Part shown: positions 4,301 to 30,361 of the stretch, one piece after another | Layout: the number at the start of each line of letters is the position of its first letter | Position numbering within the stretch: position 1 is the stretch's first letter | NCBI RefSeq assembly: GCF_037975245.1 | Contig: NC_092563.1 | Location: 4,163,001-4,227,000, forward strand | Origin: Apostichopus japonicus | Lineage: Eukaryota; Echinodermata; Holothuroidea; Aspidochirotida; Stichopodidae | Length of the DNA stretch: 64,000 bases | Direction: 5' to 3' | The notes under the pieces: generated by a model | Told to the model about the DNA's origin: nothing | What the model saw: only the letters and a program-made list of their open reading frames with translations | Databases searched by the model: none | Program-made: the position numbers and the translations under genes

Positions 4301-6957
4301 AAATATTGTTAAAGAAAATTGCCACACAATGTTTTATTGTTTTTGTTTTGTTTTTCTGATTCATCCCATTTGTTTGAAGATCAGTGTGATAATGATGCTA
4401 AAGATGTCTCTAGTTTGTTGAATAAATTTAGCTAGCAGATAAACAGCCACATCATCTGTGGGTCAGAGGTCAGAGTTGGCTGTGTACTGTGGCAGTTAAG
4501 GACAAAGATATTGAAAAATCACCATCTTTTATGGGACCTTAAAAACCTTTTAAGATAAAACAGATCTTAAACATTGTTTATAAAAGATAATTGAGTTTCT
4601 TGTTTCATCCCCTTCCTTTTTTTTGCAGGGGCCGGACACCTGCAATCTTTAAATGTATCTCACAATGCCCTGGGTTCCTCAGGTGTTGAGCTGTTGTTGA
4701 AGTGTCTGAATCCTGAGTCGATCAACAGTCTCAACCTCGGCTCAACGATTCAACGTACCGGAGACTCAAGTATAGCAAAGCACTTGGCCTCATTCTACAG
4801 TAAGGTAAGATATAAACCAAGCTCTTCTTGCCTACTGGATTACAAGTTAGATCAAGTCCTAGGCCTAGAACTTTGAAAATGTTGTCAACTTTGCTAAAAT
4901 ATGACAGGCTTGCTTAAAACATTCTCTTGGCTAAAATCAAGTTCTCATTGGGATTTTTCCTGAATTATGACTTGTATCAGCTACTGTACAGGCTTATGAG
5001 AGCAGCCCAGTAATATTTACTTTTAATAAGCAGTAGAACTGGGCTTATGTTAGACATGGATGTCATGCCGATTCTTTGACTGACGATGGTTAACAGACTA
5101 GTCTACCATGTGTCTAAGTTCTTAATGTCTACTCGCTGAAATGGAGAGTGCCTTGTTTTGTTCTACTGGCAAATGTGCAAAATCCACTGGTATATAGTAT
5201 ACAGCAAGATTATCCCCATGTGTGATCAAGGGTTTCGTACCACAAGTAATGTCTCGGTTGACTCGCACACTACATTTGTCACTTTTCAAAGCCACTTAGA
5301 GCATAGCCAAAAGTTTTCAACTGATCCAACATCATTCAATGAGATTTGTCCACCGTCCATGACCGTTTAGATTTTGAGCCTTCTAGGTTGAAGTTTAGCA
5401 TATAGCACTCTCTCCGACCCCCCCCCCCCCCCCGATCTGCCAGCTCTCCCTGTGTGGAAACCTTCCTGTTTCACCCAGGAAAATTTCTAAATTGCCTTAA
5501 ATCAATTTTGGTCCTCCCGAAAATGTTAAACCATCTGTTTATTTTAGCCACTGCAACATCTGAGCATTAAATAGATGATGGTGACCGACAAAATCCCATG
5601 AAAAGTCACTTGTTGTATAGTACCTTAAATCTTTGTCATATTTGGCCTTCCATGAGTAGGGGTGGTTATCTCTGCTATTTGTGAGTAGACTTTTCTGACA
5701 TGACACTCTTAATTACATACCCTGTAACACAGCTACATTGCCCTACTCCAAATATGCTGCAAAAATTTAACACCTTCATTGCCCAACTAGTGCAATTTTG
5801 TGCAGAACTGAGTTGTGTAACTAGGTGTCTTGATGGAAGTTCTTTTCCTGTTGTAATGCTTTTTGTGAAGTTTTTTTTTCTTTCTTCATTTTTGTCCAAT
5901 TCTTTTCCTTTTCACTTTTCAGGGTAATTGTTGTCTGCACAATCTTAATCTAGAAGACTGTAAACTCAAGGAAAATGACATGAAAACCCTGTCAAAGTGA
6001 GTGGTTATCAGCATCAATTCAAATCCCCGGTGTTTCATCCTTGAGGTCATTTTTACATGATTCTGTGATATTTTATTTGATTTTAATATTTATTTTCTAT
6101 CCATATAATTTTTCTATTTACATGAAGGTCAAATACCTCTATAAGTGTCACACTCAACTTTATTGAGAACTGTCTGCTTAAAGAAAAATTTGACCATTAT
6201 GTAAACCATGGAATGACCTTTCCATGTGGAACATAGTCACTGAAAATATATTAAATTTAGTGTAGTAATTCTAGGAATTGTATGGTTAATATTAATAAAT
6301 AGTACTGTTAAATACTACCATATAGTTGCTCAGTATGCAGACCACAGAGATTGCTAATGCCCTCTCTATCTTTTTTCAGTGAAAATATTAAAGGTTTCTG
6401 CTATCACTTTTAATAGTCTACATTTAGTCTCACTTATGTTGTGAATGGCTTGCTGTTGCAGTTTGAAATCCTTCTCCCCTTGCAAAGTTCGTTGCTTACT
6501 TTATTATTATTATTATTATTATATTTTTTTGAGTGGTTCAGACTGTCATTTCAGATTTTCCTCAAGCTTCGCTTTTCCTTAATATCGTCTCTTCAGATGT
6601 ATCCCAGGTTCATTGTCAGTAAGCTGGTCTCATCTAGGTCTCTCTGCCAACCCCCTCATCACTCATAGAGGTATCCATCTCCTGCTAGCTGGCCTTCAAG
6701 AGGCAGGATGTGGCTTAAAGTCTCTGGACCTCTCCCTGTGCGGACTGGAGTCACCTCTAGAGGGAGACATGTTCGATCTATTAGCGGGATTCATGTCACC
6801 GGAGCACCCTTCGGGAGAAGCCCTCGCAAAAGTTGTACTCTCCGGAAACAAATTAAGCAAAGTTGATTTGGAGGTTCTGATCAATGTTTGGGAAGCCACA
6901 CATGATGAATCGGCTGGACATTGTATTGATAAAGTTAGATGTATCCTCTATGCTTAA
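332..6957 (+). CDS. TONSL: TONSL-like protein, copy A (3' part; 5' end outside window)
   Basis: TONSL is a replication-stress scaffold that pairs with MMS22L and handles histones and RAD51 loading at damaged forks (family knowledge). Exons read from splice signals and frame: 332-1394, 1866-2019, 2501-2579, 3239-3576, 4093-4264, 4629-4804, 5923-5996 and 6597-6957, ending in TAA. Phases agree at every junction and give about 805 residues. Domain order is a linker with the TONSL-type VYRTAMDSVGSATSRL and EDWLIEDL motifs, a UBL domain starting MRVKVRV, then LRRs to the C-terminus. TPR and ankyrin regions would lie upstream of base 1 and cannot be assessed. Gene structure over UBL and LRR matches copy B exon for exon, so the two are tandem duplicates. 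Protein identity between them is only about half by eye, so the duplication is old. Confidence 0.9.
1780..1855. repeat. (ATTA)n/(TTTA)n simple repeat
   Basis: Tetranucleotide tract of attaatta and tttattta units immediately upstream of the copy A exon at 1866. No function is apparent. Confidence 0.9.
1866..2579 (+). other. TONSL: Copy A UBL-domain exons
   Basis: Two exons, 1866-2019 (154 nt) and 2501-2579 (79 nt), finish the UBL. They contain IKWLSEETGNRYYSFSGLRP and, after a 481-nt intron, VLANVESWHMPPLQERY. The latter matches the TONSL sequence after the UBL (human: NDEVLAEVTSW followed by DLPPLTDRYRR). The 154-nt exon has the same length and phase as its copy B partner. An (ATTA)n tract lies in the intron just upstream. 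Confidence 0.88.
3239..6957 (+). other. TONSL: Copy A leucine-rich-repeat exons and C-terminus
   Basis: Exons 3239-3576, 4093-4264, 4629-4804, 5923-5996 and 6597-6957 encode the LRR array. Repeat cores visible in order include LRKLLLARNRI, LSLIDLSCNEV, LEELVLDYNSL, LNRLSLTSTYI, LQSLNVSHNAL, INSLNLGSTI, LHNLNLEDCKL, LGLSANPLITHRG, LKSLDLSLCGL and LAKVVLSGNKL. In human TONSL this region contacts MMS22L and is needed for fork recruitment (family knowledge). For the last exon the acceptor at 6595-6596 was chosen because it gives phase 2 and the CIP tripeptide shared with copy B; the later ag at 6606-6607 breaks the frame. Confidence 0.9.
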
Positions 6958-8782: not shown

Positions 8783-9235
8783 CAGGCGCGTATCCAGGAT
8801 TTTCTAACCCGGGGGGCGCGAATTACTATCTAAGCGGAGCGCCACCATCGGTTGGCGCGGAGCGTACAAGAAAATTTCTGGTTTTGATACCCCCCAGATC
8901 ACCGGAAATGGCACTTCTCGGGCTTGAAAATGACCAACCAGATGTACACTTTTGCCTGAGAACCGCAGTATTTCCCAAAAGTTTTTTTTCCATCCATAAC
9001 CTTTTTCAAGATTGTCACCAGTCACACATCATGTTCGACCTCATTGCATGTCCTATGGATCATTGCTTTTGTAGGTGATTCTACGTCACGGCCCACAATA
9101 TCCGAAAGCCCCACTTTTCAAGGTTTTAAGCCCATTATTTGTTGAGAATTTGAAAATTCACATTTATTATAAAACTGCGTTGAAGGAAATGAAAAATAGC
9201 AGATATTTCCGATATCAGGTATATCGAAACCGAAC

Positions 9236-9704: not shown

Positions 9705-10356
9705 ACAGTTTTTGGGGCTGTTCATCCTGGAACATGCATTTCAATGCTCACTGATATGATGTTATATATGCTCTTTGCTTTACAAATTCGAAAAGGCGTG
9801 TAGCGAGTAATTGCCAAGGGAGGGGCGAAGCCAGTAGGCAAACTATCTAAGCGAAGCGCCACCATGGTTTGGCGCGAAGCGTACAATAAGATTTTTGGCC
9901 GAAAATGCCTCCCAGACCGCTGGAAATGACACTTCCCAGGCCTTGTGCATCTAAGCATTGTCTATTTTCAGTGAAATTACTAGCGATGTCATAAAGAAAA
10001 TTTGCTCGGGGGGGGGGGGGGCGGTCGCCCCTTCTCGAAATACGTCATGTTCCCCGACGACTCGGTCGAGTTCAAGACCAGCCACAGTTGGTTCCATATA
10101 GCACAATTGTACAATTGTTTAAGGCTTCCATACACACACGCGCGTTATGATAGACCATATATAGTATTTATGTAGATACATTAGTGAGAGAGGAAAAATG
10201 GAAACGTCAAAAATGGAGTTGTCGGTGTAAGGGGTAGGGTAAGGCGCACTCCCCCTCCGTAATCCTTGATCTGTCACTGGCTACCCTGTGTATATAGTAG
10301 GGATCAGCGCTTTAACTATGACTGTTCCTCTTTCTCTTCCCGAGGTCTTGGCTATC

Positions 10357-12414: not shown

Positions 12415-15400
12415 ATGAAGACACCGGAAAGAATTAAGTTGGCTCGTAAGTTTTTCATCCAAACTTTTGCTCATAACTCAGTTTTTGACTTTCCTGCAAT
12501 ATGTAAAGTGCATTTATCCATTTTTTAATTTTCACAAGCACTGGACAAGATTGCATAGTTTGCATTTAAGATAAGACGCTACATGTATTCACGTTTCAAA
12601 TTTCTTCACTTCTGAATGTGCCCACAGGTTGTAATTGAGCATTCACAAAATATATAAAGTGATGACTGATGAGTATGATACTGCTGCAGATTTGCCATAT
12701 AGACTGCTTAACATTCTTCATGAATGTTACATGACTATCTTTCTCTGAAATTTGATGTCTTCGTAAAATTCTGTTTCAAATGTTTGTGTTATCCTGGTGC
12801 ATAATATATTTACCCATATCTAATGCAAGCATACTGTTACTCTACTGACCTAAAATTTACTTGTATTAATGTCATAATTTCAGTCAGAGATACTGTACAT
12901 GGTGGTGCTGGGTTTTAGGGTTACATTCCGAAATCTAGGTAGTTTAAATTATTGTTTTGTGTGCAAAGATTTGCTCTAGTTTTCTCTCGACATTTTATTC
13001 ATATGTTCTACTTTCAGGTCTTATGAGGGAAAAGTTGAAGTTTTCACAAAGTGGAAAGGCCAGGAAGGAAGCTGAGATTGATGGCAAGATAGGAAGACTG
13101 CACATAAGAAATGGTAGTGATTACCTTTAGTACTTTAAATTAAGTATCTTACCAATAGGTTGTAATAATTCTTTTAAAAGGAAGTGGAAAGAAACCTTTT
13201 TAGTTGAAAAAATCAATTCATTCATTCGATCGTATACTGGCTTTTGTGCATTTGCTCATTTAGTTTTCCCATCTGTCCTAAATTCATTCATACAATAGTT
13301 ATGATTATTTTTTTATTACGTTTATTTTGTTGATTTGTTTGTTGTTTCCTGAGATGTTGATATGGAACTCAGTTATAAATTTTTGTAAAATATTGTTTTC
13401 CTTCTTAAGGAAGTTACCAAGAGGCCATTAAGGCATTCAAAGATGAGATGGAGATCTGGACACGTCAGAAAGACGCCATGGGAGAAGCCATGAGCCACCG
13501 TAGCCTCGGGGAATGTTTCGCAGAGGTGGGGTACTTTCCGATCGCACTCAGTCACCATCACCAGTACATGGCCTGGGCCGAGTCTAACAAGAACTATCCT
13601 GAGTTACAGCGGGCTCTGGCTACCCTCGGAAGGACGTATATCTGTAAAGCCGCCTCGGCCGATGAGAAGGGAAGCTCGGAGGCAACCACCAGCATCAGTA
13701 AATCGGAGGAAGCTTTCTTGAGGTAACTTTCACTGATTATAAACTCCCTGATTGTTTTTTATAGCAGCTGCGCTTATGTTTGCACTGTTAATGGTCGTAA
13801 TGGAAAATGAATACATCACTAGGAATCACGGGTGTGCAAAAATATGTTCAGATTGCCAAGTAGCAAACGAGAATTACCAAACCACTGAGGACTCCGCTCA
13901 ACAATGCACTTCACAGCAGTTATAAATTTTTTACAGTGGTGGGGACTTGTGGGGCGAGACTCTAACCACTACACCACGCCTTCACCTTCCAGGGCTGAAA
14001 TTAATAATATTAAATATATGCTACAATTGCATTGGTTTTAAATTTGCCCTTCTGTAGGAGTATGTCTGTGTGCGACAATCATCTCGCTGGTCTGGTGAGT
14101 GACAATGAGCTACAGCAGATGAAAGCCCGTCTGTACCTTAACCTTGGTCTGGTTTACCTGCACCAGGAGAGCTACCCCAAGAGTATCGTCTCTATAGAAA
14201 AGGCAGTCAAAATATCACAGTAAGTACGTCTGTCCTTGTTTCCGAAGAGTGGGTTAACTTTATTACTTATAAAGTGACAAATAGTGAGAAATGGTTGTCT
14301 GATGGTATTAACAATAAACACAATTATGAGCTCCTTATTCTTTCCAATTTGAAATGCTAACATAAAAAACTGCCTGGGCTTTCGGATAGAAACAGTTCTC
14401 AAACCCAGATGCCATTAAAGCAAGGAGTATTCCTTCAGTGTAATTGCATGAAAGCGTTCAGAGATAACATCAGTTTGTCAGCTATTAGTTTATATGTTTT
14501 AGTCCATGTTTGTCAACAATTTTATATTTGTAAGTGTCCTCAGTTACATGTACCTATCCCTACTCGCTGTTCCCCTATAGCTTATTACTCTACTGTAAGA
14601 CATCTACCATCAAACTGGTAGTCACAGCACCCCTCGGCCACCATGACTCTTAGGCACCAATAGCCTTCTCGCCAACACCCTTGCAATCATACCCTTATAG
14701 CCACCCGTCCCATAGCCACCAGTACCCTCATATCCACCTGTACCCTTGTAGCCTACTTTCCCATAGCAACCACTATCCTCATAGCCACCGGTACCCTCAT
14801 AGCCACCAGTTCCCTTATAGCCACCCTTCCCATAGCCACCAGTATCCTCATAGCCACCAGTACCCTCATAGCCACCAGTTCCCTTATAGCCACCCTTTCC
14901 ATAGCCACCAGTACCCTCATAGCCACCAGTACCCTCATAGCCACCAGTTCCCTTATAGCCACCCTTCCAATAACCACCAGTACCCTCATAGCCACTAGTA
15001 CCCTTACAACCACCCGTCCCATAGCCGCCATAATTCCTTAGTCTTGCATTTAAACACAATGTGTACTTCATGAGGTGCTTAAACTTTTTTATTGTTTGTT
15101 GCATTCAGAGAGCATAACAAGATGGAGGATCTTTACAGAGGACATTTGAGTCTAGGAGATGTTTATCTGCGGATGAACAACACCAGTCAGTCCCTGCAGT
15201 CTCTAGATATAGCATTCTCCATCTCTAAGAAACTCAAAGATAAAGAAAAGGAAAGTGATGTACTCATCCAGAGAGCTCATGTAAGAGATAATGCTATTTT
15301 AACCATGTACAATATAACTAATTTATATTATTAAAATACACCAAATGTGCTCATTCAGAAACAGTCTTACTGTATGTCACACATATGCACAGTTGCTTAG

Positions 15401-18400: not shown

Positions 18401-21400
18401 TGGTAGAATTTAACCACATTGGCAGGCTTGAGGTTTTTCATAAAGTTTACTTAGCATTGTTTACACATAAAAGCCTATGTGGATCAATCAGTATAAAACT
18501 TTTTTTCCCCTGTTTTTGGTGTAAAACAGATTTTTGTGTTTCCTTATTACACTTTTCTGTCTGAAACTGTGGTAGCAGCTATATAAGTTAACAACTGATA
18601 GCAAAACAATACAGACAAATTTAAAATTATGGGTTAACTTTCATTCTCTTGTTAGATCAGCTATTTTTTGTGGTGTTGAGTTTCGCAGTTGGTTGGTTTG
18701 GTTTATTATTTGTTTTTAAAATCTGTCATAAAAATATAACCAAAGATATTTTTGATCACTCCATGATTCCCGTATCCTTATTTCTCTTTTCCTCTCATTA
18801 CCTTTACATTCTTCCTTCGTTTTTTTTTCTAGCGAAGAGTATTAAAATCTCTGGCGATCGTACAGGAACGATTCGGTCAAGCGAGCGACCTCCATGCGAC
18901 CAGAGAGAACTTGGCTAAATTAAAGAAAGATTATCAGCTTGGATCCGATAATGACAGTCTGAGTGAGGAAGAGGATCAGGTACCTCTGGCAGAATTGTCT
19001 GTCGAATCAGAAGAAGATATTGAAGCATTAGGTGAGTAAATGACCCCAGCCCTTTAAAATAAGGCAGGTTTCATTAAACACTACATGTATGTGTGTATAT
19101 ACGTGAAGCATTGTATTAAAGGGGTAGTATAATAATCCATGAGTCAATTCTGAGCTGTAGGGAATGAGTTTGTGGTGTCAATTTTAAAGGTAAAAAGTGG
19201 AAGTGTTGCAGAGTCTTGTGTCAAGGCCAAGTCTTCTCACATGGTTTTACATCAGTTGTAGTAGAATGAGATATGAGTCCCTGATAGTGGAATTACTCAT
19301 TTTAGGCAAATGTAATTAAATCACTTGATAAAGGCAATTAGGAGACTGAATTTGACATCTTCTAAGGGTTTAGTGTACTCCAGCAGCTAAGAATAGGCTG
19401 TTTTATTAGAAAAAATAGATAAATTGGGTTTGTGAATGTACAGCAGAGTTATAGAATCAGTTATGGGACTCAGAGGAGACATTAATTCTTATTTTTTTAA
19501 TGCAAATGTAATTAATAAGAACCAGATAAAGTCAAATATTGGACTACAAGCTTGAGACACTCTTAGGGGTAGTTTACTCCAGAAGTCAACATATAGCTGT
19601 TAAGAATAATTTGTGTGTGAATGTGCAGGGAGTCATATAAGCCGACTTACAAATCTCAGAGGAGAAGTTAATTATTTTAATTGAAATTTTATTAATAATC
19701 AGTAGATAAAGCTTAATATTTGGTATGATGAGTCTCAAAGCAGATTTAATAAAGTTAATGTTTCATCTCTGTAAATAATTTTTTATTTAAAATATTTTTA
19801 GTTGACGATAATGGCAACACAAAGCAAGAAAGAAATAGAAATACTGACATTTTATCTGCTTCTTGCAATTTAGGTTTATTCCCCCCCCCCCCCCCAAAGA
19901 ACTGAAAGTGAATAGTAAGACTTATTTTATTTTATCTTTATAAGATCTCTTTATGATTCTACTCTTTTTTTCTTTTTTTTTAATCGGACTAAATATGATA
20001 TTTGTAGTGAATGGACCTGAAGTGAAGAGAGAGAAGGACTCGTCAAATTTACAGGTTAGTGTTTTCATCAGAGCAGCCTCGTGTGATTGGGAATGCAAAC
20101 AAAATAACAACAATATCTGGAAGAACCATGCAAACTGTCTTCGATGACAATATTTGTTTAAAAATGTCAAAATATGATACCTCGTCTTTCTTTCAGAAGT
20201 CTCATTCAGAGGACATTCTTAACAATTGGTTGGATACAAATGAGGAAGAGATACCACAAGAGCCGGTACGCGTTCGCATTAAGCTGGAAGCCCTGGATCA
20301 TTCAGGTACATATCTATGGGCGCTCATCTTCAATAAACTTAGAAGAGACACCTCCCACTTGAAAAAAAAAAAAAAAAAATCTTTTCTTGAGTTCTTGCAG
20401 CTTGCTCTGACCCACATTTATTTGTTTTAATTGTTCTCCCCTATCCTTAGAACCATTTGGTGACCCATTTACTCCAGGAGTACCTCCAGCAAAATTATTG
20501 GAGCTTCATGACATTCAGATTAAGACGGAGCCTGCAGAGGAAACAGCCACCTCGGACTTCCAACAGACAGTAGACCAAACCAAAGGTAGATGGAGCATCA
20601 AAAGTAAGAAGGGTAAAACCCTCATATCCAGAAACTCTCCGACCAAAGCCAAGAAAAGGACGCTAAGTGACTCCCATGCGAATGACAAAATCAAAAGGTA
20701 TAGCCCAAAGCAATCCAAGGGTAAAGTAACCAGACCGAAGGACGTCCAAGACGACCCTCTGACCGTCAGAGGGAAGCTCATCGAAAAGTACTACACGGGA
20801 GACAGGAATGTGGCCAGGAAGTATTTTGAAACTACAGACGAGGCGGATGGCGCGGGGACGTCAGAGGACAGAGACAGGTCCAGGGAGGACATTGGTGGAA
20901 ACCCTGTGTCCTCCTCGAACACCGAGGTGCCCCTCTCTGAGCCATATTGGGGTCACATGTCCACGGAGAATCCCGGTGTTTCTCCCGATAGTTCCCTGCC
21001 ACACCCCACAGTGGAAGAACGGATGCCTTCCATAGCGTTCGTTCATCCTCCTCAGAAGTCGAGGATGAGGGTGAGAGTCCGGTTTAAGAGGACCACATAT
21101 CTCGTAAATGTTCCTCGAAGTTCTATGTGAGTATAAATTTTCTTGCTTGTGATTATTTAATCGCCACAAACGACTTTTGAAAAGAACTTGAATTGAACTT
21201 GAATTGAATTTGAATTTATTGTCCACAATCGGAAATTCGGCTTACACAGGTCATAAACAAAAGAAAAAAAACTAGCAATAGATATAGTCAATAAACTGCG
21301 ATACACATACAATAGTACAACAAATATACAGCAAGTCACATATGCCACATATGTTTGTTATTTCCCTGTTTTTCAATCTCTTGGTTGATTCTTATCTTTG

Positions 21401-24400: not shown

Positions 24401-27400
24401 GTGTGTTACCAACCTGTCTGTATATCTGTGCATATGGTTGGATGACTACCAACCTTTTATCTGTTTGGACAGAAGGGCATGATAACCTCCTGACCCTTTT
24501 GCTAAGTCTTGTTGGTTACTTGCCTATATACAAAAGCACAGTCGTAGGGCGATTGTTGAATCGTGATTGCTTTGTTCATGCTCTTTGATTATTCCTGAAA
24601 TGATCTTACCAGAGCTGGATTGGGGGTGTAGGTATCTGTGTTGTATGCTTTGGATGTCACATGGGTGGAAACTTGTGTTTAGTTATGTAGAAGTGTACAT
24701 AGATGGTGTGAGCGGTGAATAATTTACCCAGTATCAGCATCTCTAGAATGCTATACAAAAGGTCAAGTTGCTATTAAAACAAGTGTAAAGATGTATAGCA
24801 ATTTTCTACATAGGAACTACAGTATTCAATCAGAGAAAGAACTCCAGAGCCTTTAAAAATGCTACACAAAATTTGAGCACTAAATTACTCCCCCAGTGAG
24901 TACTTGAGTACTTAGTATACAGAGTTTCTTCTTCAGTCTTCATAATGTGTAGTTGCCTAGAGATAGACCTAATAATTATTGCAGCTGATCGGAATTTTGA
25001 CGCATGTTCGTAGCGCTACTCAAATAAATTTGCAGCCTTGTAGTTTGCTTCTCTAAATAGAGCATTAATTACTGAAATGTTGTTCTTTTATTTAATTGTT
25101 AACATTTCCTCAAAATTGATGATTTACGTCAATTTCAGACTCCAGAAGAGACAGTGCAATACTTCCTTTTTTTTTCCTCTTTTTTTTCTGTATTTGTTTT
25201 GATTTTTGTAGGTGCTCCTAATCTCCAAGTCCTGGATGTATCCCACAATGCATTGGGATCAACTGGCATTGATATGCTGATGAAGTTTTTGAATCCAGAA
25301 ATCCTTACGACACTGAATTTTTCATCAGTAATTGAAGACAAAGATGCAATGAGCTTGTGCAATCATATAGCTTCATACTTTAAGGAGGTAAGTATGCTGC
25401 TAGTATGTTCTGTAGTTTTCTCAATGTGAAGGATAAATCCAATGAGCCTGTGTAATCATATATCTTCATACTTTAAGGAGTTAAGTATGCTGCTAGTATG
25501 TCGTGTGTCATTGGTAGATGCGAATTATGATTCAATGAGTTTGTGTAGGCATACAACTTCATACTTTAAGATTGTAACTGTGCTGGTAGTATGTTACCTT
25601 TCATCAGGAGCAGATGGTAGTTTACCACATGCTTTAGTTAATATAAAGTTGCATACCTTAAACCAGGTTAGTATGTAGTAAGTATACTTACTAATACCTT
25701 GTTCTAATGAGTGTTTCTGTAACCACCCTCCTAGCAGCTGTAAAATGGGATAAAAACCGTGATAGCTTTCATGTCAAATGATGCTGAATTAATCGGCACT
25801 CCATTTCAACTTGACAAAGCGTGATGTATAATCATGGATTGTTGTGTAATATTTCTTTCTTCCATTTTGATTGTTTCTAGACCCAGTGTGCCTTGCATAC
25901 ATTGTATCTGGAAGGATGTAACCTCTGTGACAGCGACATGCAAGCCCTATCCACGTAAATATAGATTGTATATCACATCAACCAGTAACAGCATCGCACT
26001 ATGTATGCTAGTAATGTTACATTGAATACATGCAAGCCCTATCCACGTAAATATAGATTGTTTATCATAGCAACCGGTAATCGCATCGCACTATGTTCGC
26101 TAGTAATGTTACATTGAATACATGCAAGCCCTATCCACGTAAATATAGATTGTATATCACAGCAACCGGTAATAGCATCGCACTATGTATGCTAGTAATG
26201 TTACATTGAATACATGCAAGCCCTATCCACGTAAATATAGATTGTATATCACAGCAACCAGTAACAGCATCGCACTATCTATGCTAGTAATGTTACATTG
26301 AATACATGCAAGCCCTATCCACGTAAATATAGATTGTTTATCATAGCAACCGGTAATCGCATCGCACTACGTTCGCTAGTAATGTTACATTGAATACATG
26401 CAAGCCCTATCCACGTAAATATAGATTGTATATCACAGCAACCGGTAATAGCATCGCACAATGTATGCTAGTAATGTTACATTGAATACATGCAAGCCCT
26501 ATCCACGTAAATATAGATTATTTATTACAGCAACCAGTAACAGCATCGCACTATGTATGCTAGTAATGTTACATTGAATACATGCAAGCCCTATCCACGT
26601 AAATATAGATTGTATATCACAGCAACCAGTAACAGCATCGCACTATGTATGCTAGTAATGTTACATTGAATACATGCAAGCCCTATCCACGTAAATATAG
26701 ATTGTATATCACAGCAACCGGTAATAGCATCGCACTATGTATGCTAGTAATGTTACATTGAATACATGCAAGCCCTATCCACGTAAATATAGATTGTATA
26801 TCACAGCAACCGGTAACAGCATCGCACTATGTATGCTAGTAATGTTACATTGAATACATGCAAGCCCTATCCACGTAAATATAGATTGTATATCACATCA
26901 ACCAGTAACAGCATCGCACTATGTATGCTAGTAATGTTACATTGAATACATGCAAGACTTATCCACGTAAATATAGATTGTATAACACAGCAACCGGTAA
27001 CAGCATCGCACTATGTATGCTAGTAATGTTACATTGAATACATGCAAGCCCTATCCACGTAAATATAGATTGTATATCACAGCAACCGGTAACAGCATCG
27101 CACTATGTATGCTAGTAATGTTACATTGAATACATGCAAGCCCTATCCACGTAAATATAGATTGTTTATCACAGCAACCAGTAACAGCATCGCACTATGT
27201 ATGCTAGTAATGTTACATTGAATACATGCAAGCCCTATCCACGTAAATATAGATTGTATATCACAGCAACCGGTAACAGCATCGCACTATGTATGCTAGT
27301 AATGTTACATTGAATACATGCAAGCCCTATCCACGTAAATATAGATTATTTATTACAGCAACCGGTAACAGCATCGCACTATGTATGCTAGTAATGTTTC

Positions 27401-30361
27401 ATTGAATACATGCAAGCCCTATCCACGTAAATATAGATTGTATATCACATCAACCAGTAACAGCATCGCACTATGTATGCTAGTAATGTTACATTGAATA
27501 CATGCAAGCCCTATCCACGTAAATATAGATTGTATATCACAGCAACCGGTAATAGCATCGCACTATCTATGCTAGTAATGTTTCATTGAATACATGCAAG
27601 CCCTATCCACGTAAATATAGATTGTATATCACATCAACCAGTAACAGCATCGCACTATGTATGCTAGTAATGTTACATTGAATACATGCAAGACTTATCC
27701 ACGTAAATATAGATTGTATAACACAGCAACCGGTAACAGCATCGCACTATGTATGCTAGTAATGTTACATTGAATACATGCAAGCCCTATCCACGTAAAT
27801 ATAGATTGTATATCACAGCAACCGGTAACAGCATCGCACTATGTATGCTAGTAATGTTACATTGAATACATGCAAGCCCTATCCACGTAAATATAGATTG
27901 TATATCACAGCAACCGGTAACAGCATCGCACTATGTATGCTAGTAATGTTACATTGAATACATGCAAGCCCTATCCACGTAAATATAGATTGTTTATCAC
28001 AGCAACCAGTAACAGCATCGCACTATGTATGCTAGTAATGTTACATTGAATACATGCAAGCCCTATCCACGTAAATATAGATTGTATATCACAGCAACCG
28101 GTAACAGCATCGCACTATGTATGCTAGTAATGTTACATTGAATACATGCAAGCCCTATCCACGTAAATATAGATTATTTATTACAGCAACCGGTAATAGC
28201 ATCGCACTATGTATGCTAGTAATGTTACATTGAATACATGCAAGCCCTATCCACGTAAATATAGATTGTATATCACAGCAACCGGTAACAGCATCGCACT
28301 ATGTATGCTAGTAATGTTACATTGAATACATGCAAGCCCTATCCACGTAAATATAGATTATTTATTACAGCAACCGGTAACAGCATCGCACTATGTATGC
28401 TAGTAATGTTTCATTGAATACATGCAAGCCCTATCCACGTAAATATAGATTGTATATCACATCAACCAGTAACAGCATCGCACTATGTATGCTAGTAATG
28501 TTACATTGAATACATGCAAGCCCTATCCACGTAAATATAGATTGTTTATCATAGCAACCGGTAATCGCATCGCACTATGTTCGCTAGTAATGTTACATTG
28601 AATACATGCAAGCCCTATCCACGTAAATATAGATTGTATATCACAGCAACCGGTAATAGCATCGCACTATGTATGCTAGTAATGTTACATTGAATACATG
28701 CAAGCCCTATCCACGTAAATATAGATTGTTTATCACAGCAACCAGTAACAGCATCGCACTATGTATGCTAGTAATGTTACATTGAATACATGCAAGCCCT
28801 ATCCACGTAAATATAGATTGTATATCACAGCAACCGGTAACAGCATCGCACTATGTATGCTAGTAATGTTACATTGAATACATGCAAGCCCTATCCACGT
28901 AAATATAGATTGTATATCACAGCAACGGGTAATAGCATCGCACTATGTTCGCTAGTAATGTTACATTGAATACAGTGTCATATGCAGGGAATAAATTCAG
29001 TGTTCAAATTTTGTGTGGCAGTCATGCTGGCATTTAAGTTTGTCTCTTATACAGTACTATGGTTTTACTGTGTACAAAACTGTTATACAGCTTTGCAGTG
29101 GTATAGCAATATTGACTATCTTGCGTACCATTTTGCAATGGGATACTGGATAAATTAATATTCCTGATTGATTCTATTGATAATGTTTACATCAATAACA
29201 TCACTATCCACATTCCACAATGATAAGCAGCACTATCCTCAGAATCCAAAAATCGGTCAAAAAAAAAATTCAAAAGGTTGATAAGAAACACTTGCTTTAA
29301 AGTAAAGAACGATGATAACGAAATGTCAGACTTCATTTCAGATTACAGAAGCAAGTGTTCAAAAAACAGTAATTTTTTTTCTATATTCTTACCATTTTAT
29401 GCACCTATTACATCTTGTCAAAATGGTAATTGTCAGATTTTCTGATGTTTTGCAATCTGCTTGAGTCGTTAATGTGAATGTCCCTTCTAGGCTTCCGTAT
29501 CAGATATTTCTTTTCAGTTAACATAGATCGATACATCATGGAAAGTTGCTACACATGTTACCTAATTGAGATGCAATTTTATCTGGGTTAGAAAGTAAAA
29601 GAACATTCTCTCTCTTTGTCTCAGTTTGCAAGTTGTACTATTAGAAAGTTCTCCATCCGGGTGAATGGGTTGTGGAGGGGAAGAGAAGTGGGTCATGGGA
29701 GAGGAAGCAGTCCAAAGCTATTTCTCTCTTTCATTTCTATGAAAACTGACATTAGTATTATCGCATGAACACATTTGCTGACTGAAAAAAGCTGCTATTA
29801 TTCCTTATAATTTGTCAACTTCATATGAAGAGAGAAATAGGTTGAAGAGGGGATACAAGGTTTGAATGGCAATATTAACCCCCCCCCCTTCACCCACCCA
29901 CCCCTTCCTCCACGCTTTAGTAATACGTCACTGTTGTTTGTTGTATTTTTTTTCTTCTAACCATTGTCATGGTAATTTTCATCTCCAGGTGCATACCATT
30001 TACCAAGTTTTGGCATCATGTAAGTCTGTCTTCCAACACTGGCATAACTAACCAAGGTCTCGTCACTCTGTTGAGAGGATGGAATACCTCCGGCTGTCGA
30101 GTAGGATCATTAGACGCCTCTCTCTGCGGGCTGGTGTCCCTGCTGGGGCAGGAACTCATCACGCTGTTGATAAGGTTCATGACCTCGACGGACCAATCCG
30201 AAGGCTGCATGACTACTTTAAAGCTATCCAATAATAAATTGAGTGACAGCGACCTGGAGTTGTTGAAGAGTATCTGGCTGTTAGGTCATGGAACAGCTTC
30301 CAGTCTGCTGATTGAACAAATGCAAGCAGTTTTCTCCACAGATGAGGAGAAATCAATTTAA
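12415..30361 (+). CDS. TONSL: TONSL-like protein, copy B, complete, without ankyrin domain (20 exons, 1224 aa)
   Basis: Exons by splice signal and frame: 12415-12445, 13018-13113, 13410-13722, 14058-14219, 15109-15280, 15624-15738, 16344-16492, 17056-17208, 18180-18305, 18833-19031, 20008-20054, 20197-20305, 20451-21126, 21761-21914, 22630-22705, 23465-23763, 24009-24183, 25212-25387, 25881-25954 and 29989-30361. The sum is 3675 nt, exactly in frame, with every junction phase consistent. Order: TPRs (about aa 25-465), acidic tail (475-505), basic linker (506-760), UBL (about 765-835), LRRs (about 870-1224). Human TONSL (1378 aa) has three ankyrin repeats between acidic region and linker; none is visible here. 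The start ATG opens MKTPERIKLARLMREKLKFS, matching the TONSL N-terminal helix in position. A derived paralogue is likelier than a pseudogene, because every exon is open and spliced in phase. Confidence 0.9.
13938..13986 (-). repeat. tRNA-like (A-box) SINE fragment
   Basis: Read on the minus strand, the segment has TGGTGTAGTGGTTAGAGTC, a good Pol III A box, as in the head of a tRNA-derived SINE. No B box follows within about 60 nt, so this is a truncated relic in intron 3 of copy B. Confidence 0.45.
14640..15030. repeat. 69-bp higher-order minisatellite in copy B intron 4
   Basis: Basic 18-mer ccaccagtaccctcatag alternates with a 15-mer ccacccttcccatag. Together 15+18+18+18 make a 69-bp unit starting at 14752, 14821, 14890 and 14959, with diverged copies at both ends. 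The minus strand is open for 160 codons (14622-15104) and reads as a Gly/Tyr-rich repeat (GGYEGT, GGYKGT, GGYGKG). I treat that as a by-product of the repeat: it lies in an intron, its start has no context and its length follows from multiples of three. Confidence 0.9.
19032..20007. other. Intron where the ankyrin exons would be expected
   Basis: This is the 976-nt intron between the acidic exon and the 47-nt exon 11. I looked on the plus strand for the TONSL ankyrin signatures (GETPLHRAC, DYCGWTPLHEAC-like) and found none. A C run lies at 19881-19895 and T-rich tracts follow. The sequence holds repeated tagggg/cag/ttataat-like AT-rich stretches but no coding exon. Confidence 0.6.
20008..21126 (+). 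other. TONSL: Copy B linker exons (no ankyrin repeats)
   Basis: Exons 20008-20054, 20197-20305 and 20451-21126 encode about 277 residues joining the TPR tail to the UBL: acidic, then strongly basic (KKRTLSDS, KRYSPKQSKGKVTRPK). Residues 603-618 (20585-20632) read GRWSIKSKKGKTLISR. This aligns without gaps to the start of the TONSL ankyrin domain (K-W-N-R-R-N-x-x-G-E-T-L-L-H-R) but lacks the HRAC core and everything after it. The linker motifs of copy A (VGSATSRL, EDWLIEDL) are missing. The last residues begin the UBL (MRVRVRFKRTTYLVNVP). Confidence 0.8.
21761..22705 (+). other. TONSL: Copy B UBL-domain exons
   Basis: Exons 21761-21914 (154 nt) and 22630-22705 (76 nt) encode PPLTFQWLADQAALRY followed by VIANIDSLITTPSQDKPP. 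The WLADQAA.RY core matches human TONSL WLAEQAAQRY closely. Exon lengths and phases mirror copy A (154 and 79 nt). A (TA)n run lies in the intron downstream, at about 22796-22818. Confidence 0.88.
22796..22818. repeat. (TA)n microsatellite
   Basis: About 11 TA units in the intron after copy B exon 15. Confidence 0.9.
23360..23440. repeat. 52-bp tandem duplication in intron
   Basis: The 29-mer beginning gtggtcgactcatcgcattg occurs at 23360-23388 and again at 23412-23440, both preceded by a ctacggctgg-like stretch. It is a recent local duplication about 25 nt upstream of the acceptor for the exon at 23465. Confidence 0.85.
25348..25680. repeat. Degenerate 93-bp tandem repeat of an exon end plus 5' splice site
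   Basis: Unit 1 (25348-25440) contains the last 40 nt of the LRR exon and its donor. Copies follow at 25441, 25534 and 25627, exactly 93 bp apart. Each has the exon-like aatgag..tg..catacttcatactttaag part, then a donor-like base run: gtaagtatg, ttaagtatg, gtaactgtg, gttagtatg. Only unit 1 carries a full consensus donor. Copies are clearly diverged, so this array is older than the 92-bp array in the next intron. Confidence 0.85.
25938..28973. repeat. 33-copy, 92-bp minisatellite made from an exon/intron boundary
   Basis: Units start atgcaagccctatccacg at 25938 and recur every 92 bp (checked at 25938, 26030 and 26122 and at later points). The array ends at 28973, so it holds 33 units exactly. 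Unit 1 begins inside the coding exon 25881-25954: its first 17 bases encode MQALS plus the split codon, and the following gtaaatatag is the functional 5' splice site. Every later unit therefore repeats the last 17 exon bases and the donor. Variation lies mostly in the middle and 3' half (tgtatatcacag / tgtttatcatag / attatttattacag; ccggtaacag / ccagtaacag / ccggtaatcgc). Confidence 0.97.

What the first reader, a model, noticed from the sequence alone, without database searches (positions are those of the whole stretch)
25881..28973. 33 tandem copies of a functional 5' splice site (exon-boundary minisatellite)
The 92-bp unit begins with the last 17 coding bases of copy B exon 19 and its donor gtaaatatag, and unit 1 is the real exon end. 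By eye the segment tatccacgtaaatatag is unchanged in all 33 units while the rest varies. Each unit also has a possible acceptor (tatcacag) 68 nt before the next donor; splicing one in would add an immediate in-frame stop (T-N-R-stop in the common variant). The array could thus be a bank of decoy donors or poison exons tuning this DNA-repair gene, or it may tolerate decoys because all donors are equivalent to the true one.
Basis: partly seen in the sequence, partly recalled or inferred. Interest (0 to 1): 0.85.

Follow-up and report, generated by a model that had tools for sequence, protein, structure and literature searches.

The report
Tandem array of duplicated splice donors
In a sea cucumber repair gene the end of one exon, with its splice signal, has been copied head to tail into 33 units, and similar copied exon ends were seen in other genes of the same genome, giving a natural test of how cells choose among identical splice sites.

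Summary
The array is real: 33 units of exactly 92 bp (25936-28971), unit 1 being a true exon end, with CAC|GTAAATATAG identical in 33 of 33 units. The genome is almost certainly Apostichopus japonicus (sea cucumber), the gene the second of two tandem TONSL-like copies. The structure is of a known kind, the "mirages" of lancelets; searches listed no echinoderm case. The preceding exon carries an older, decayed array over its own donor, and of 172 exons sampled from chaperonin, kinesin and myosin genes 9 have donor-spanning and 2 acceptor-spanning repeats. In this array alone the donor is not clearly special (donor 9-mer P=0.13, rank 26 of 92). Pooled over 7 arrays the donor 9-mer shows 0.16 of the mean divergence (P=0.0003; by variable columns P=0.009; by a tie-conservative rank test P=0.18); donor-like 9-mers in 20 other arrays show no such effect. 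The poison-exon idea is not supported: its acceptor lies in the variable middle and loses AG in 5 of 33 units. Most likely: a donor-spanning minisatellite, tolerated because the true donor comes first, its copies kept intact by exchange and perhaps selection.

The parts
25881..25954 (+).
   Evidence: tblastn match to the other copy at 5917-5994, E 7e-4; sequence
25936..26027 (+). Unit 1: last 19 exon bases, true donor CAC|GTAAATATAG, 73 intron bases; identical to units 11, 17, 19 and 28
25955..25956 (+). True 5' splice site (GT), by homology and frame; no RNA evidence
   Evidence: homologous donor in the other copy at 5997; in-frame join to the exon from 29989
26028..28971 (+). Units 2-33: 32 further copies of exon end plus donor; use of any later donor would read ACG TAA, an in-frame stop, straight after the exon
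28972..28974 (+). ACA, 3-bp microhomology between the array's start (ACATGC) and the sequence after it (ACAGTG)
25212..25387 (+).
25342..25594 (+). Second, older boundary array: 93 bp x 2.7, about 80% alike, spanning that exon's own donor; copy 2 has TT for GT, copy 3 is weak (ATT|GTAACT)
29989..30361 (+). Last exon, acceptor CTCCAG|GTGCATACC

Best explanation
This is a donor-spanning minisatellite ("mirage") in the second of two tandem TONSL-like genes of a sea cucumber. A 92-bp segment made of the last 19 exon bases, the donor and 73 intron bases was first duplicated, probably through 3-bp ACA microhomology, then expanded and homogenised by multi-unit unequal exchange or slippage in which unit 1 took part. 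The upstream-most donor, the only one attached to the exon with a real acceptor, is used; the 32 copies lie downstream, leave with the intron, and would give an immediate stop if used. They stay intact because copies are exchangeable with the true one and because copies of real donors seem, in this genome, to be selected to remain donors. Shown: array, boundary, frame, unit order, other cases in the genome, pooled donor conservation. Inferred: which donor is used, and the cause of the conservation.
For: Exact array and true exon end. Homologous donor in the other copy, which has no tandem repeat listed there. Unit 1 identical to units 11, 17, 19, 28; unit order repeated. Later donors give ACG TAA. 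Nine of 172 sampled exons have donor-spanning repeats (read by eye). Pooled donor 9-mer divergence 1.09 against 7.00 expected, P=0.0003 over 7 arrays; flanks -12..-4 P=0.48 and +7..+15 P=0.61; 9 of 63 donor columns variable against 16.6 expected, P=0.009; P=0.0015 over 11 arrays. Control: 20 other arrays, 17.55 against 20.02, P=0.28 sense and 0.26 antisense; 7 against 20 arrays, Mann-Whitney P=0.011. Lancelet mirages are reported not to disturb regular splicing (PMC3087553 and PMC3902484, passages).
Against: No RNA evidence. For this array alone donor conservation is not clear, and combining per-array ranks with ties counted against the effect gives P=0.18. The true donor is weak: 5 of 38 chaperonin donors score as low by PWM and 2 of 38 pair as weakly with U1; of 1142 GTs at 20-40 kb 54% pair with U1 at least as well and 13% score at least as high by PWM. 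In array L016a unit 1 has GTAAGT while the copies' consensus is GTAGTA, so exchange with unit 1 is not general. Both copies on the preceding exon have changed donors. In the four low-copy arrays alone the donor gives P=0.20. The pooled test was devised after seeing the data.
Confidence: 0.68

Rival explanations
1. Purely neutral minisatellite: the anatomy and the use of the first donor are as in the best explanation, but the donor copies are passengers whose intactness reflects recent expansion only.
For: Donor invariance in this array is within chance by two tests. Repeats at exon 3' end windows (12 of 172) are no commoner than at intron control windows (124 of 1376, P=0.47). Changed donor copies are tolerated on the preceding exon.
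Against: Pooled over 7 arrays the donor 9-mer shows 0.16 of the mean divergence (P=0.0003; P=0.009 by variable columns), while its flanks and donor-like 9-mers in 20 other arrays do not.
Confidence: 0.3
2. U1-binding bank: each copy binds U1 snRNP and strengthens recognition of a weak donor or protects the intron from premature polyadenylation.
For: Pooled conservation lies in -3..+6, the U1-pairing window, and not in its flanks. U1 genes of this genome carry ATACTTACCTG at the 5' end. The true donor is weak.
Against: The other gene copy does without an array. Other arrays follow average or strong donors (GAT|GTAAGT 8.5, CAG|GTGAGA 10.3). Exon-derived columns are also below the array mean in 8 of 10 arrays that have them, which fits exchange with unit 1 as well. 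No binding data.
Confidence: 0.15
3. Poison-exon bank: 68-nt cassettes between TATCACAG and the next donor are spliced in and down-regulate the gene.
For: Splicing one in would read T-N-R-stop in the common variant (sequence).
Against: AG lost in 5 of 33 units, TATCACAG exact in only 19 of 33; only 10 of 92 windows are more variable than the acceptor; little polypyrimidine tract is visible in the sequence.
Confidence: 0.04
4. Assembly artefact.
For: Long near-identical arrays can be mis-sized (general knowledge; no call).
Against: 15 distinct unit types at regular 92-bp spacing; the matching assembly was made from HiFi long reads (PMC10344927, passages); similar arrays occur in unrelated genes.
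Confidence: 0.03

Closest known systems
Lancelet mirages (Adh3, globins BflGb6 and BflGb9, TnC, PGBD5)
   Same: Minisatellite-like tandem repeats spanning exon-intron boundaries, many units keeping splice signals, homogenised among themselves (PMC3087553 passages; PMC3902484 passages)
   Different: Here an echinoderm; 33 units against 6 and 3 (BflGb6 haplotypes) or 2-7 (PGBD5); unit 1 is identical to inner units, whereas cluster-boundary units were excluded from homogenisation in BflGb6
Human IFI6 (6-16) minisatellite with multiple splice donor sites (Turri et al. 1995)
   Different: Only the title was seen, in reference lists; the paper is not held; the gene name is recalled. Unit size and donor use are not compared here
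Variable internal tandem repeats at exon-intron boundaries of human segmental duplications
   Same: Minisatellite-sized repeats at exon-intron boundaries
   Different: Reported to lead to novel introns or retained repeats in young paralogues (PMC2812944, passages); no new intron is inferred here
Human hTERT intron 6 VNTR
   Same: Intronic minisatellite that affects splicing
Intron gain by tandem duplication (potato RdRp)
   Same: Tandem duplication within a gene
   Different: Leads to a new intron (PMC4974935, title and start of abstract in a search listing)

Membership tests
[quoted passage not shown]
   Unit 1 covers 25936-26027, donor at 25955
Mirage minisatellite | Unit size in the reported range, 10-160 bp | tested here: met
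   92 bp against 10-72, 150-160 and 157 bp
Mirage minisatellite | Units carry AG/GT splice signals | tested here: met
   Donor GT in 33 of 33 units
Mirage minisatellite | Homogenisation within the array, boundary units excluded | tested here: inconclusive
   Unit order repeated; unit 33 has a private change, but unit 1 is identical to 4 inner units
Mirage minisatellite | Regular splicing not disturbed | not testable with these tools
   No RNA data
Mirage minisatellite | Copy-number differences between haplotypes, somatic instability | not testable with these tools
   One assembly haplotype only
Poison-exon array | Conserved acceptor before each donor | tested here: not met
   AG lost in 5 of 33 units; acceptor window more variable than average
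TONSL gene | TPR, ankyrin and LRR parts (architecture recalled) | tested here: inconclusive
   Second copy: TPR matches below Pfam's cut-off and LRR_6 matches, two of them above it. First copy: an ankyrin exon matches PDB 5ja4 Tonsoku-like protein at 118 bits in one stretch, listed behind many other ankyrin proteins. No ankyrin exon seen among frames of 35 aa or more at 18901-20500 in the second copy

The most novel reading that the evidence does not exclude
In this lineage donor-spanning minisatellites are a normal part of gene structure (about one exon in twenty in the three families sampled), and the copied donors are held by purifying selection as working U1 sites, so that arrays of dozens of identical donors are maintained while the spliceosome reliably takes the first.
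Probability: 0.25. Interest if true: 0.8.

Novelty: new member of a known kind. Interest (0 to 1): 0.6.

Why it matters
Arrays of identical donors are a natural experiment on donor choice: exon definition and first-transcribed-first-used predict donor 1, a preference for the intron-proximal site predicts the last (these rules are recalled). If about 5% of exons in a sea cucumber carry such arrays, RNA reads could answer the question genome-wide. A tandem duplication leaves the true donor first but the true acceptor last, so a donor excess over acceptors would itself tell how splice sites are chosen; the counts here (9 against 2 of 172, P=0.06) lean that way without proving it.

Tried and rejected
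Poison cassettes: rejected on the acceptor's variability. Homology between the 92-bp unit and the 93-bp unit of the preceding exon: none found (score 19, reached by 174 of 1000 shuffles and 174 of 935 window pieces), so probably two separate events. Donors as hot spots for arrays: no, 12 of 172 3'-end windows against 124 of 1376 intron windows, P=0.47; 5'-end windows are poorer than introns, 3 of 172, P=0.0003. Donor against acceptor: 12 against 3 windows P=0.03, but 9 against 2 once read by eye, P=0.06. By set, 3' and 5' windows: chaperonin 42 exons 5 and 0; first 50 kinesin 0 and 0; myosin 40 4 and 0; last 40 kinesin 3 and 3. Kept as a lean only.

Failed or faulty steps: fuzzy-anchor unit cutting missed many units and was replaced by alignment to a cyclic consensus. 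One search printed its counts and then stopped on a file-writing error; one search repeats the question with more exons and shifted windows. In one search the other copy's donor was looked up one base off and not scored, and some chaperonin donors there are probably wrong picks. In one search copies of L016a and L141 were missed because of indels, and the frame used for the preceding exon was off.

Left out of the survey: kinesin 90 of 126 matches used and myosin 40 of 70, in listing order among rows with no stop inside, except that one myosin row (C19:18664958) was overlooked; chaperonin 42 of 57 (those inside nine fetched stretches, one more dropped because cut by a stretch end). Control windows may touch unrecognised exons, and neighbouring exons' stretches overlap.

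Full report
Observation. TRF reports 33.0 copies of a 92-bp unit at 25936-28974. TATCCACGTAAATATAG occurs 33 times, exactly 92 bp apart; 18 of 92 columns vary, there are 15 distinct unit sequences, and 8 units equal the consensus. Unit 1 holds the last 19 bases of an exon and its donor. The array starts with ACATGC and is followed by ACAGTG, a 3-bp microhomology that suits a first duplication by slippage or end joining (inference). A genome search found this sequence at this one place; it skips very common words.

Genome and gene. The mitochondrial contig (16,099 bp) carries, by my reading of its open frames, cox1, nad4L, cox2, atp6, cox3, nad3, nad4, nad5, nad6 (minus), cob, tRNA-Phe and later nad1 and nad2 on the plus strand, with long frames in code 9; I recognise this order, from recall, as that of sea urchins and sea cucumbers. 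Total length and contig number fit the published assembly of Apostichopus japonicus (671.6 Mb, 34 scaffolds, HiFi reads; PMC10344927, passages) plus a mitochondrion. The gene is the second of two tandem copies, 38-62% alike in protein exon by exon. TPR matches are below Pfam's cut-off; LRR_6 passes it in two exons. An ankyrin exon of the first copy matches PDB 5ja4, Tonsoku-like protein, among hundreds of ankyrin proteins. I call it TONSL-like, partly from recall of that architecture.

Boundary. The homologous exon of the first copy ends ATGAAAACCCTGTCAAA followed by GTGAGT, in the same phase as ATGCAAGCCCTATCCAC followed by GTAAAT. The next exon continues in frame in both. The second copy's donor is weak: among 38 chaperonin donors, picked as the best-scoring GT near each exon end, 5 score as low by PWM and 2 pair as weakly with U1; of 1142 GTs at 20-40 kb 54% pair with U1 at least as well. 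Later donors of the array would give ACG TAA.

A second array next door. The 93-bp, 2.7-copy repeat at 25342-25594 spans the end and donor of the preceding exon. Its true donor is strong (GAG|GTAAGT); copy 2 has TT for GT and copy 3 reads ATT|GTAACT. The two units show no relation. TRF lists no repeat at either exon of the first copy.

Turnover. Unit 1 is identical to units 11, 17, 19 and 28, and types ABC occur at units 1-3 and 28-30. Repeated neighbour pairs were reached in 0 of 5000 shuffles of unit order and triplets in 0.06%; the longest shared run was not significant, P=0.18. So blocks of units, probably unit 1 included, have been copied.

How common. Exons came from Pfam matches in the same genome: chaperonin, kinesin and myosin, 172 in all. 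I asked whether a 90-nt window at each exon end has a copy within 400 bases. Windows at 3' ends: 12 of 172; at 5' ends: 3 of 172; intron controls: 124 of 1376. Read by eye, 9 of the 12 include the donor (L012 at 8724, two in L016, L070, L088, L106, L121, L131, L141) and 2 of the 3 include the acceptor (L119, L127). The others (L098, L012 at 7412, one in L016, L138) do not. Donor-spanning repeats are thus found in all three families, but 3' ends are not richer in repeats than introns (P=0.47), and 5' ends are poorer (P=0.0003). The window array is the longest in bases of the donor arrays aligned (3039 bp) but not the richest in units: L016a has about 39 and L016b about 37. Stretches of about 1 kb cut some arrays short.

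Conservation of copied donors. For seven arrays with 2.7 or more copies, aligned to a cyclic consensus, the summed relative divergence of -3..+6 is 1.09 against 7.00 expected from random rotation, P=0.0003, and 0.0010 without this array; -12..-4 gives P=0.48 and +7..+15 P=0.61. Counting variable columns only, 9 of 63 against 16.6 expected, P=0.009. Combining per-array ranks with ties counted against the effect gives P=0.18, so the strength depends on the statistic. Adding four low-copy arrays, two of them with changed donors, gives P=0.0015, between 0.0002 and 0.0052 when one array is left out; the four alone give P=0.20, and there -12..-4 is conserved too (P=0.002), which may come from how they were found. 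Exon-derived columns are below the array mean in 8 of 10 arrays that have them. In 20 other arrays, among them the acceptor-spanning L119, the best donor-like 9-mer gave P=0.28 on the sense and 0.26 on the antisense strand; seven against twenty, Mann-Whitney P=0.011. The test was devised after the data were in hand, and the donor copies were first recognised by eye.

Mechanism. The duplication leaves the true donor upstream-most, attached to the exon with its acceptor, and all copies downstream. Under exon definition or first-come choice (recalled rules) the true donor wins and the copies leave with the intron. Intactness of the copies can come from exchange with unit 1, from selection for U1 sites, or partly from youth. 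The data favour some constraint on copied donors but cannot separate these causes. The poison-exon reading fails on the acceptor.

Comparison. Lancelet mirages are the same kind of structure: repeats over exon-intron boundaries, in several genes, homogenised, and said not to disturb splicing (PMC3087553 and PMC3902484, passages). The founding paper (Canestro 2002) and the human minisatellite paper (Turri 1995) are not held and were seen as references only. Of searches for an echinoderm case one found no paper and one listed 15 of 33, none of which looked relevant by title and abstract start; in the searches on mirages the listed papers that looked relevant were the two lancelet papers (the last listing 10 of 186). 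Most subscription papers are outside that library.

Verdict. A true observation of a known kind of structure, in a phylum where I found no report of it, one of several in this genome, with pooled evidence that copied donors are constrained.

Noticed in passing
25342-25594: Older 93-bp array over the donor of the preceding exon, with changed donors in both further copies.
   Followed up: yes
L016 1-9766: A chaperonin gene whose introns are packed with minisatellites, two of which span donors (31 bp, about 39 units; 69 bp, about 37 units).
   Followed up: partly
L119 256-464 and L127 169-486: Acceptor-spanning tandem repeats in kinesin genes (42 bp x 5 and 168 bp x 1.9; L127 coordinates on its minus strand).
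   Followed up: partly
L088 540-980: Myosin exon end with donor duplicated once as a 220-bp tandem copy.
   Followed up: partly
L012 7201-7560: Chaperonin exon end copied once just downstream, the copy ending about 3 bases before the donor.
   Followed up: no
14622-15104: Minisatellite with an open minus-strand frame rich in Gly and Tyr, inside the second gene copy's span; no Pfam match.
   Followed up: no
18901-20500 and L001 8634-8942: The first gene copy has an ankyrin exon; none was seen in frames of 35 aa or more in this part of the second copy.
   Followed up: partly
G000:C20:29019462-29087219: Cluster of at least 42 U1 snRNA matches, many about 856 bp apart.
   Followed up: no
G000:C29:14745-31219: Further cox1 pieces outside the mitochondrial contig.
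   Followed up: no
8825-8926 and 9842-9945: A roughly 100-bp pair about 79% alike, possibly remains of a mobile element.
   Followed up: no
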